Positions 47,905 through 63,836 of a DNA stretch of 64,000 nt are shown piece after piece. How positions within the stretch are numbered: the stretch's first letter is position 1; each line of letters starts with the position of its first letter. The position numbers and the translations under genes were made by a program. The stretch lies in the NCBI GenBank assembly GCA_025617745.1, contig CM046859.1, positions 23,064,006 to 23,128,005 of the forward strand. The letters run 5' to 3'. The notes under the pieces were generated by a model. The model was given only the letters and a program-made list of their open reading frames with translations, was not told the DNA's origin and ran no database searches. The DNA is from Heliocidaris erythrogramma. Taxonomy: Eukaryota; Echinodermata; Echinoidea; Camarodonta; Echinometridae.

Positions 47905-48084
47905 CTTTGACGTTGAAAATGGCCCGTCGCCGAGCAGAAGTCCAGGCCTGGAGGCGGCTAGCCCCTCGTCCGGCCTGGTGCTTAACTTTCCCCAGAGGAG
48001 GGAGTCCTTCCTCTATCGCTCGGACAGCGAGTTTGACCTCTCACCAAAGTCCATGTCCAGAAATTCTTCCATCACAAGTGAATC
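47905..48084 (+). CDS. PDE4: PDE4 exon 2: long-isoform common exon with UCR1 start and PKA site
   Basis: The acceptor (CTTTCTCATGCAG) and donor (AATC|GTAAGT) are both strong. The first base completes the codon from any phase-2 start exon. The 180-bp exon encodes [14 protein letters not shown], then [18 protein letters not shown] and [12 protein letters not shown]. This is nearly residue-for-residue the region in human PDE4A/B/D where UCR1 begins. RRESF holds the conserved PKA phosphorylation site that activates PDE4 long isoforms (Ser codon 48,005-48,007). Exon end is phase 2. Its presence makes any transcript using it a long form. Confidence 0.95.
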
Positions 48085-52769: not shown

Positions 52770-52880
52770 ACATACACAAGAAGACATTATCGTCACACCG
52801 TTCGCCCAGATCCTTGCCAGTTTACGAAATGTACGGAAGAACTATGTTAATCTTACGGGTCTACCACAAAATGCACCAAG
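52770..52880 (+). CDS. PDE4: PDE4 exon 3: UCR1
   Basis: The 111-bp exon lies between CTCCAACTGCAG and AAG|GTAAAG. The A at its start completes the Ser codon left by exon 2. It encodes [18 protein letters not shown], then [18 protein letters not shown], the UCR1 core found in all PDE4 long forms (human DLIVTPFAQVLASLR). UCR1 interacts with UCR2 to regulate and dimerise the enzyme. The exon ends in phase 2. Confidence 0.95.
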
Positions 52881-53436: not shown

Positions 53437-53623
53437 CAACAGGCAATCTCCCAGAAGTACTCAGGCAAACAAGCAGTCATCGACGCAATCATCGACAGGG
53501 TCATCGACAGACGAGAACTCGTCCAAGATGGCGACAGACACGTTAGAAGAGCTGGACTGGTGTTTAGACCAGCTTGAGACGATGCAAACGCATCGGTCCG
53601 TCAGTGACATGGCAACAAGCAAG
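53437..53623 (+). CDS. PDE4: PDE4 exon 4: linker 1 and UCR2 start
   Basis: The 187-bp exon encodes a Ser/Thr/Gln-rich linker ([16 protein letters not shown]) and then [32 protein letters not shown], the start of UCR2. Two acceptors six bases apart (CAAAG at 53,436 and CAACAG at 53,442) are both in phase. The first gives APSNRQSP, matching PSNKRSP of mammalian PDE4A, so I chose it; the second omits two residues. The donor is AAG|GTAATA, phase 0. The in-frame ATG at 53,528 (AAGATGG) could start a short isoform lacking UCR1 if a promoter lies in intron 3. The exon is followed immediately by an inserted repeat. Confidence 0.93.
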
Positions 53624-57419: not shown

Positions 57420-57513
57420 TTCAAGCGGATGTTAAATCGAGAGCTATCAGCATTCTCAGAAACAAGCAAATCAGGGAACCAGATCTCAGAATACCTCTAC
57501 AACACATTTCTTG
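57420..57513 (+). CDS. PDE4: PDE4 exon 5: UCR2 core
   Basis: The 94-bp exon starts in phase 0 after GGTCACACAG and ends in phase 1 at TTG|GTAAGT. It encodes [17 protein letters not shown], then [14 protein letters not shown], almost identical to the UCR2 helix of mammalian PDE4 ([25 protein letters not shown]). This helix can fold over the active site. The gating position is Tyr (SEY), as in PDE4A/B, not the Phe of primate PDE4D. The frame is easy to miss because another frame is also open across the exon. Confidence 0.95.
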
Positions 57514-61086: not shown

Positions 61087-61331
61087 ATAAGCAACAAGAA
61101 GTTGATCAGCCAGTACCCCTGTCGGCGAGGGAACTTGCACCCTCGCCCTCACCGCTCAGCAAGGCGCCAGCTTCAAAGAAGCTGCTTAAGGCCAACGAAC
61201 TGATGAAGATTAAGGGTGTCAGCTCGTGCATCGTCAACAAGCCCAAGCACAACAATAATGCCATCAGTGGTGAAATTGTCAAGAAGTTTGGGGTGCCTGT
61301 CAAGAAAGAAAAGGAGGAAGACTTAGAAAAG
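61087..61331 (+). CDS. PDE4: PDE4 exon 6: UCR2 end and linker 2
   Basis: The first two bases complete the Asp of NTFL-DKQ, continuing UCR2. The 245-bp exon encodes DKQQEVDQPVPLS, a Pro/Ser/Ala-rich linker (APSPSPLSKAPASKKLLK), then MKIKGVSSCIVNK, a short Asn-rich part and FGVPVKKEKEEDLEK. The human equivalent is SQISGVKKLMHSSSL, then RFGVKTEQED. The GV and FGV anchors are kept but the stretch between is clearly divergent. The exon ends AAG|GTGAGG in phase 0. Downstream exons 7 to 10 follow within 2.5 kb, much tighter than the 5' half. Confidence 0.92.
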
Positions 61332-61944: not shown

Positions 61945-62043
61945 GAGCTGAGGTTACTTGATGCATGGAGTATCGATATATTCAAGATTGATGAGATAAC
62001 GAGCCACAGACCCCTCACAGCCGTCATCTATAGATTGTTTGAG
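61945..62043 (+). CDS. PDE4: PDE4 exon 7: start of catalytic domain
   Basis: The 99-bp, phase-0 exon encodes ELRLLDAWSIDIF, then KIDEITSHRPLTAVIYRLFE. It aligns over its full 33 residues with human ELEDLNKWGLNIF, HNRPLTCIMYAIFQ. Acceptor TTATCAACAG and donor GAG|GTAAGT are strong. These helices form the N-terminal part of the class I phosphodiesterase fold. Confidence 0.94.
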
Positions 62044-62341: not shown

Positions 62342-62506
62342 GATCGAGGTTTATTAAAGACATTTCAGATTCCTGAGAAGACTTTCTTAATATACATGAT
62401 GACGTTGGAAGACCACTATCACAGAGAGGTTATATACCACAACCAAACCCATGCAGCTGATGTCGTACACTCCACGCACTTTCTCTTGTCGGCTCCGGCA
62501 CTCGAG
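62342..62506 (+). CDS. PDE4: PDE4 exon 8: catalytic domain with YHN-HAADV motif
   Basis: The 165-bp phase-0 exon encodes [20 protein letters not shown], then [21 protein letters not shown] and [13 protein letters not shown]. The YHN-X-X-HAADV motif holds the catalytic His (YHN) and the first metal-ligand His (HAADV) of PDE4; both are present. The usual ERDLLK reads DRGLLK here, a change from Asp to Gly. Acceptor has a long T tract; donor GAG|GTAAGT. Confidence 0.95.
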
Positions 62507-62545
62507 GTAAGTGGGCAGGGATGGTGGTAGTTGTAGTGGTAGTGT

Positions 62546-62790
62546 ATCAATGATGATGATGTTCATTCATGTTCATAATGATGATGATGATGATGATAAT
62601 GATGGTGATGGTGGTGGTGATGATAATGATGATGATGATGATGATGATGGTAATGGTAAGGATGAGGATTAGAATGAGGGTGATTATAATGATGAGGATT
62701 AGAATGATAGTACGATGATGATGATGATGATGGTGATAAGGATGTGGAGGAGGAGGATAAGGAGGATGATGATGGTTATGATAATCATTA
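62546..62790. repeat. (GAT)n-type trinucleotide microsatellite
   Basis: GATGATGAT with AAT, GGT and GAG variants. Met/Ile-rich frames here are artefacts. Confidence 0.92.
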
Positions 62791-63018
62791 TAATGAGGAC
62801 GAGGAGAAGATTTTGTGGGCTGGTCATAATGATGATGCTGTTGTACACTGAAACACTGTCTTCCCAGCTACTACACTCAAAGAGTTTAGTATTGAAGGAT
62901 GATGGTAGGATTCATTCCAACATTGCAGTTACATTGATGATTTTGTTCTTTGGTTCATAGACATACATGTATTATTGAGTTCGCCATTCTTTTTTTTTCT
63001 CTCTCTTTGTGATGGTAG

Positions 63019-63118
63019 AATGTGTTCACAGATCTTGAGATCATGGCCGCATTGTTTTCAGCAGCAATACATGATGTTCATCATCCGGGTCTTAACAATC
63101 AATTCCTGTGTAATACAA
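63019..63118 (+). CDS. PDE4: PDE4 exon 9: HD metal-binding motif, with an unusual His
   Basis: The 100-bp exon (phase 0 to phase 1) encodes [18 protein letters not shown], then [15 protein letters not shown]. The His-Asp pair of the HD motif, known metal ligands in PDE4, is intact. The next conserved acidic residue of HDVDHPG is replaced: the codon at 63,079-63,081 is CAT (His) instead of an Asp codon. The acceptor is GATGGTAG with a pyrimidine tract about 10 bases upstream. The donor ACAA|GTAAGT is followed by an overlapping GTAAAT, but only the first keeps the frame with exon 10. Confidence 0.94.
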
Positions 63119-63681: not shown

Positions 63682-63836
63682 GTGCAGAACTAGCAATACT
63701 ATACAATGATGTCTCTGTCTTGGAGAATCACTCCCTCGCCGTCGCCTTCAAACTCCTCCAAGAGGACAACTGCAATATCTTTGAGAATCTCACCAAGAAA
63801 CAGCACCAAACCCTCAGGAAAATGTCCATTGACATG
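63682..63836 (+). CDS. PDE4: PDE4 exon 10: catalytic domain, last exon in the window
   Basis: The 155-bp exon completes a Ser codon and encodes [20 protein letters not shown], then [16 protein letters not shown] and [15 protein letters not shown], closely matching human PDE4 ([28 protein letters not shown]). The second His of ENHH is Ser here (codon 63,732-63,734). It ends ATG|GTAAGG in phase 0. The following exons, which should carry the final metal-ligand Asp and the purine-binding Gln, lie beyond the window. The acceptor AG ends a TTATTATTATTACAG run. Confidence 0.95.

What the first reader, a model, noticed from the sequence alone, without database searches (positions are those of the whole stretch)
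63067..63093. Asp-to-His substitution in the HD motif of a PDE4 (HDVHHPG instead of HDVDHPG)
Seen: codons at 63,070-63,087 read His-Asp-Val-His-His-Pro. Known: in PDE4 the motif is HDVDHPG, and other class I PDEs that I know keep Asp or Glu at this spot. The metal ligands themselves remain. Inference: replacing a conserved acidic residue beside the binuclear metal site could change metal affinity, activity or substrate preference. The change needs only one base (GAT to CAT), so a sequencing error or allele must also be considered.
Basis: partly seen in the sequence, partly recalled or inferred. Interest (0 to 1): 0.72.

Follow-up and report, generated by a model that had tools for sequence, protein, structure and literature searches.

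The report
PDE4 gene with altered catalytic histidines
An animal gene for the cAMP-degrading enzyme PDE4 carries the reported Asp-to-His change, which is probably mild, plus an unreported His-to-Ser change at a neighbouring active-site position that is the same in the human and worm enzymes, so its activity deserves a test.

Summary
Window 63070-63087 reads CAT GAT GTT CAT CAT CCG (HDVHHP), inside a cleanly spliced exon (63019-63118). The visible gene is an unbroken long-form PDE4: nine exons, all ag..gt, joined into 445 open codons; Pfam PDE4_UCR E=2.5e-49. The Asp is reported as acidic in all human class I PDEs, but it is the free 'x' of PROSITE PS00126, is not among the 17 residues unanimous in 21 human PDE genes, and is Gly in the active Giardia enzyme. 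The Pfam profile scores Gly 0.7 bit below Asp, though His 3.6 bits below.

At 63732-63734 the next exon reads VLENHS where PDE4 reads VLENHH. That His is unanimous in 21 human and 6 worm PDEs; TCC differs from either His codon by at least two bases. Of 12 unanimous residues visible, 11 are kept. Published work pairs the Asp with the immediately preceding His as a salt bridge across the H-loop, so both changes touch one small cluster. Most likely this is a genuine PDE4 with a remodelled H-loop and metal second shell; activity is untested. New variant of a known kind, interest moderate.

The parts
47905..48084 (+). PDE4 exon upstream of and entering UCR1 ([19 protein letters not shown], containing the RRES site)
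   Evidence: tblastn with human PDE4D (recalled), 68% identity; ag..gt borders; aligned with PDE4B 4wzi
52770..52880 (+). UCR1 exon
   Evidence: Pfam PDE4_UCR PF18100 on the joined protein, residues 68-191
53437..53623 (+). UCR1/UCR2 exon
57420..57513 (+). UCR2 exon
61087..61331 (+). linker exon between UCR2 and catalytic domain, longer than in the PDE4B chain 4wzi
61945..62043 (+). first catalytic-domain exon
62342..62506 (+). catalytic exon with YHNQTH (proton donor His and first metal-ligand His kept)
63019..63118 (+). catalytic exon holding HDVHHPG
63079..63081 (+). flagged codon CAT (His) where human PDE4 has Asp (PDE4B position 277, PDE4D position 203; by count from named neighbours)
63682..63836 (+). 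next catalytic exon (AELAILYND...VLENHSLAV...)

Best explanation
[quoted passage not shown] Inferred: the Asp-His bridge is replaced by a weaker His-His contact, so the H-loop is held less firmly. Ser, a shorter hydrogen-bonding side chain, replaces His in the second shell of the metal site. The enzyme most likely still hydrolyses cAMP, with altered turnover, Km or metal dependence, because the visible direct ligands and the proton-donor His remain and the rest of the visible protein looks maintained.
For: In-frame codons and splice borders. 445 open codons over nine exons, with UCR and PDEase_I domains matching Pfam and PDE4B 4wzi at E=2e-132. PS00126 matched exactly: [12 protein letters not shown] (pattern as printed). 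Giardia PDE, with Gly at the Asp position and Ala at its partner His, complements PDE-deficient yeast (section title seen) and hydrolyses cAMP, Km 408 uM. Pfam column scores at the flagged site: D 147.0, G 146.3, E 145.5, Q 145.3, N 145.1, R 145.0, S 144.9, A 144.4, H 143.4, Y 143.2. At the second site Ser (143.4) is the least disfavoured of six non-His residues tested: A 142.7, D 142.7, N 142.4, Q 142.1, T 142.1. The Asp and Arg of the catalytic dimer ion pair, whose Asp lies in the H-loop (PMC4371794), are both kept by count (YND and LRKM). The regulatory exons match human PDE4D at 50-68% identity, as expected of a gene still in use.
Against: The second His is unanimous in 21 human and 6 C. 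elegans PDEs, so a working enzyme without it would be unusual; setting it back to His raises the Pfam score 3.3 bits. Giardia PDE keeps that His (His-1176), so it is no precedent for the Ser, and its Km of 408 uM is high. From recall only, mutating this His in rat PDE4D abolished activity. The last part of the catalytic domain (Thr, Asp, two Glu and Gln of the unanimous set) is not in the window, so intactness is not shown. No related echinoderm sequence could be examined, so fixation in the lineage is not shown. No structure was measured, so the spatial link of the two sites rests on the literature.
Confidence: 0.5

Rival explanations
1. The gene encodes a catalytically dead or very weak PDE4-like protein (pseudo-enzyme or relaxed paralogue) kept for its UCR, scaffold or cAMP-binding roles.
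For: Loss of a unanimous metal-pocket His together with the H-loop acid. His at the flagged site scores ninth of the ten residues tested in the Pfam column.
Against: Eleven of 12 visible unanimous residues and three of four metal ligands are kept. Frame and splice sites are intact in the window, and both substitutions avoid the direct ligands. An enzyme in decay would be expected to lose ligands as well.
Confidence: 0.3
2. The flagged Asp-to-His is an allele of one individual or a base-call/assembly error, GAT read as CAT.
For: One base suffices. No reads, second assembly or transcript could be consulted.
Against: The second substitution in the same cluster (His to TCC) needs at least two base changes in a different exon, so that one is not a single error. 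Frame and splice sites are otherwise clean.
Confidence: 0.1
3. Ordinary lineage drift: Asp-to-His is a neutral change at a tolerant position with no functional meaning, and the Ser is likewise tolerated because the hydroxyl takes over the hydrogen bond.
For: PS00126 leaves the position free. Gly occurs in an active enzyme. Over the two exons 20 of 84 residues differ from human PDE4A anyway.
Against: The position is described as acidic in all human PDEs and His is disfavoured in the Pfam column. The second site is unanimous in the 27 enzymes of PMC12346295 Table 2.
Confidence: 0.1

Closest known systems
Human PDE4A/4B/4D (class I cAMP phosphodiesterases, long forms with UCR1 and UCR2)
   Same: UCR1, UCR2 and catalytic domain order; YHNxxH, HDVxHPG, E-N-H; 64 of 84 residues identical to PDE4A over the two exons concerned
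   Different: Asp to His in HDVDHPG, His to Ser in ENHH, Ile to Cys in FLINT, longer linker between UCR2 and catalytic domain
Giardia lamblia PDE (GlPDE, PMC5617230)
   Same: Has also lost the acid of HDxDH (Gly-1146) and so the proposed H-loop salt bridge
   Different: Lost the partner His as well (Ala-1175) but keeps the metal-pocket His (His-1176). The window protein does the reverse: keeps the partner His, loses the metal-pocket His. GlPDE is 21-32% identical to human PDEs by that paper and no UCR is mentioned in the passages read

Membership tests
Class I cyclic nucleotide phosphodiesterases | PROSITE PS00126 HD[LIVMFY]xHx[AG]xx[NQ]x[LIVMFY] | tested here: met
   [12 protein letters not shown] found in the joined protein; pattern from PMC6436744 and PMC5617230
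Class I cyclic nucleotide phosphodiesterases | Pfam PDEase_I (PF00233) above cut-off | tested here: met
   141.1 bits, cut-off 24.8, profile positions 1-109 of 238; the rest lies outside the window
Class I cyclic nucleotide phosphodiesterases | 17 residues unanimous in 21 human PDE genes | tested here: inconclusive
   12 of 17 visible; 11 of 12 kept, second His of ExHH is Ser (Y212, N220, G265 and A279 read from the joined protein); 5 of 17 beyond the window
Class I cyclic nucleotide phosphodiesterases | Second His of ExHH (metal pocket) | tested here: not met
   TCC, Ser, at 63732-63734. The family models and the signature are nevertheless met, so this lowers the claim 'active PDE', not the homology
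Class I cyclic nucleotide phosphodiesterases | Four direct metal ligands (PDE4B His238, His274, Asp275, Asp392) | tested here: inconclusive
   Three visible and kept (ligands named); the fourth is outside the window
PDE4 | Upstream conserved regions (PF18100 PDE4_UCR) | tested here: met
   167.4 bits, cut-off 26.9, full profile 1-119
PDE4 | Closest solved relatives are PDE4 chains | tested here: met
   All 43 distinct PDB sequences at E<=1e-60 (a threshold I set) carry PDE4 names
PDE4 | cAMP-specific hydrolysis, rolipram sensitivity | not testable with these tools
   needs enzyme assay; the Gln and later pocket residues are beyond the window

The most novel reading that the evidence does not exclude
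The two changes are a compensated histidine exchange. The acid of the H-loop clamp became His, the metal-pocket His became Ser, and the imidazole count of the cluster stayed the same. The new His-His clamp would titrate near physiological pH, or let a neighbouring imidazole serve the vacated second-shell place. That would give an active PDE4 whose cAMP hydrolysis responds to intracellular pH or to a different second metal. If the animal is indeed an echinoderm, this would fit a group in whose sperm cAMP synthesis is reported to be controlled by pH (PMC12867704, search listing only).
Probability: 0.07. Interest if true: 0.7.

Novelty: new variant of a known kind. Interest (0 to 1): 0.38.

Why it matters
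Published comparisons list the second His of ExHH among the strictly conserved residues of class I PDEs. A natural, apparently maintained PDE4 without it, and with the neighbouring H-loop acid turned into His, is a ready-made test of which second-shell residues of the bimetal site are really needed. If the protein is inactive instead, it would be a natural pseudo-PDE4 with intact regulatory regions.

Tried and rejected
Alternative or mutually exclusive catalytic exons in the window: searched with the catalytic exons as DNA and protein; only the exons themselves and matches at chance level were found. Pseudogene by frameshift, stop or lost splice site within the window: not supported. Viral-contig scan for relatives: 9 stretches matched a pattern, none encodes a relative. 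Genome-contig scan with an alignment of class I PDEs: 1 confirmed locus of 55 stretches, L001, which by eye looks like an animal PDE9-type gene in a spirochaete bin; it keeps HDLDHPG and ENHH. The window's own genome by the genome search: nine requests, none answered. Papers: no paper of the held library has HDVHHPG or HDVDHPG as text (figures are not held). For sea urchin or echinoderm PDE4, one search found 98 papers, of which I saw 20 titles and abstract starts, and one search found 2; none of those titles or abstract starts concerns an echinoderm PDE4 sequence. PMC12346295 did put S. purpuratus PDEs into a tree, but only the figure legend is held. Mutagenesis of the ExHH histidines: searches, of whose listings (15 of 38; 15 of 26; 10 of 16) I opened the likely ones; nothing found. 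The two papers citing Jacobitz cite the 1996 domain mapping, and PMC4371794 deals with another H-loop salt bridge, that of the dimer. Structure prediction was not run: only the first half of the catalytic domain is in the window, and I judged that a single-sequence model would not resolve side-chain contacts.

Papers, what was seen: PMC5617230 passages, abstract part and some references; PMC6436744 passages; PMC12346295 passages, section 7 and section 45 with Table 2; PMC11820465 passages; PMC11559988 and PMC10650832 passages; PMC7720076 and PMC10865986 passages; PMC12823826, PMC9502408 and PMC4371794 passages; PMC12867704 search listing only. Terry 2003 was seen only as a reference in PMC5617230. 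Recalled, from no call: the rat PDE4D mutagenesis (Jin, Swinnen and Conti 1992), the binding of metal-bound water by the second ENHH His, and which YHNxxH His is the proton donor. PDE4B 277 and 307 and PDE4D 203 are counted from neighbours named.

Full report
Observation. The bases at 63070-63087 are CAT GAT GTT CAT CAT CCG, His-Asp-Val-His-His-Pro, as reported. They lie in an exon from 63019 to 63118 with ag before and gt after it. Nine such exons (47905-48084, 52770-52880, 53437-53623, 57420-57513, 61087-61331, 61945-62043, 62342-62506, 63019-63118, 63682-63836) all have ag..gt borders and join into 445 codons without a stop. The joined protein matches Pfam PDE4_UCR (2.5e-49) and the first 109 of 238 positions of PDEase_I (6.2e-41). 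It matches human PDE4B 4wzi at 2e-132; all 43 distinct solved sequences at E<=1e-60 are named PDE4. So this is a long-form PDE4 gene that is unbroken as far as it can be seen and runs off the right edge of the window.

How unusual is the flagged change? In the alignments that were printed the residue is Asp in PDE4A, 4B, 9A and 10A. PMC5617230 calls it a totally conserved acidic residue of human PDEs. First, PROSITE PS00126 has 'x' here, and the window protein fits the pattern exactly. Second, the position is absent from the 17 sites unanimous in the 21 human PDE genes (PMC12346295 Table 2). Third, Giardia PDE has Gly here (Gly-1146) and hydrolyses cAMP with Km 408 uM. Scoring the protein against Pfam with ten residues at this place gives Asp 147.0 bits, Gly 146.3, Glu 145.5, Gln 145.3, Asn 145.1, Arg 145.0, Ser 144.9, Ala 144.4, His 143.4, Tyr 143.2. 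So the place tolerates change, but His is ninth of the ten tested. Ten of 20 residues were tested.

The change that was missed. The next exon reads [10 protein letters not shown], where PDE4A and PDE4B read S-V-L-E-N-H-H-L-A-V. The second His is one of the 17 unanimous sites, kept in all 21 human and 6 C. elegans PDEs. [quoted passage not shown] The codon is TCC at 63732-63734, two bases away from CAC and three from CAT, so one wrong base cannot explain it. Restoring His in silico adds 3.3 bits, restoring Asp adds 3.6, both together 6.9. Ser is the least disfavoured of the six non-His residues tested at this second place. Of the 12 unanimous sites encoded in the window, 11 are kept and this is the only loss; the other five lie beyond the edge.

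The two changes belong together in space, by the literature. [quoted passage not shown] The window protein keeps that first His (63729-63731, CAC) but has lost its acid partner and the next-door metal-pocket His. Giardia shows the opposite pattern: partner His lost, metal-pocket His kept. PMC4371794 describes the H-loop of PDE4 as highly organised and that of PDE2 and PDE5 as mobile and able to fold into the catalytic pocket, which makes a looser clamp a plausible route to altered activity. The dimer ion pair of that paper, an H-loop Asp and an Arg of helix 11, is kept here by count.

Mechanism. Three of four direct metal ligands (PDE4B His238, His274, Asp275; the fourth is Asp392; named in PMC11820465) and the YHNxxH segment are present. 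I infer an enzyme that still binds both metals and hydrolyses cAMP, with a less firmly clamped H-loop and a Ser in place of His in the second shell of the metal site. Confidence 0.5. The main rival is a catalytically weak or dead PDE4-like protein (0.3). I recall, without a source seen here, that mutating the equivalent His of rat PDE4D destroyed activity, which speaks for the rival. A base-call error or private allele at 63079 remains possible (0.1), as does plain neutral drift (0.1).

What could not be done. The window's genome could not be searched. The other genome collections at hand are prokaryotic, viral or plasmid, so echinoderm relatives, reads and transcripts were out of reach. The viral scan found no relative. 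The prokaryote scan found one, an intron-broken PDE9-type gene in a spirochaete bin, with HDLDHPG and ENHH kept.

Verdict. New variant of a known kind, interest 0.38.

Noticed in passing
   Followed up: yes
L001 1-1476 (MPNH01000015.1): A contig filed under a Spirochaetaceae bin carries a PDE9-like gene split by an intron-like gap (HDLDHPGYNN in one ORF, [23 protein letters not shown] some 500 bases on in another); by eye it looks like animal DNA mis-binned into a bacterial MAG.
   Followed up: partly
window 52770-52880: The UCR1 dimerization motif RNN of human PDE4D long forms (RSN in PDE4A and 4C; PMC4371794) reads RKN here ([11 protein letters not shown]), a charged residue in the middle.
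   Followed up: no
window 62540-62840: The intron just before the HDVHHPG exon is filled with a long degenerate GAT/ATG microsatellite (seen by eye).
   Followed up: no
window 61087-61331: The linker between UCR2 and the catalytic domain is longer than in the PDE4B chain 4wzi and of different sequence (gapped).
   Followed up: no
window 1-64000: No gene other than PDE4 recognised, by a limited look: 10 of 60 ORFs of 90 aa or more (9 of them left of 47900) gave no Pfam match, no tRNA, no Rfam family at gathering score.
   Followed up: partly
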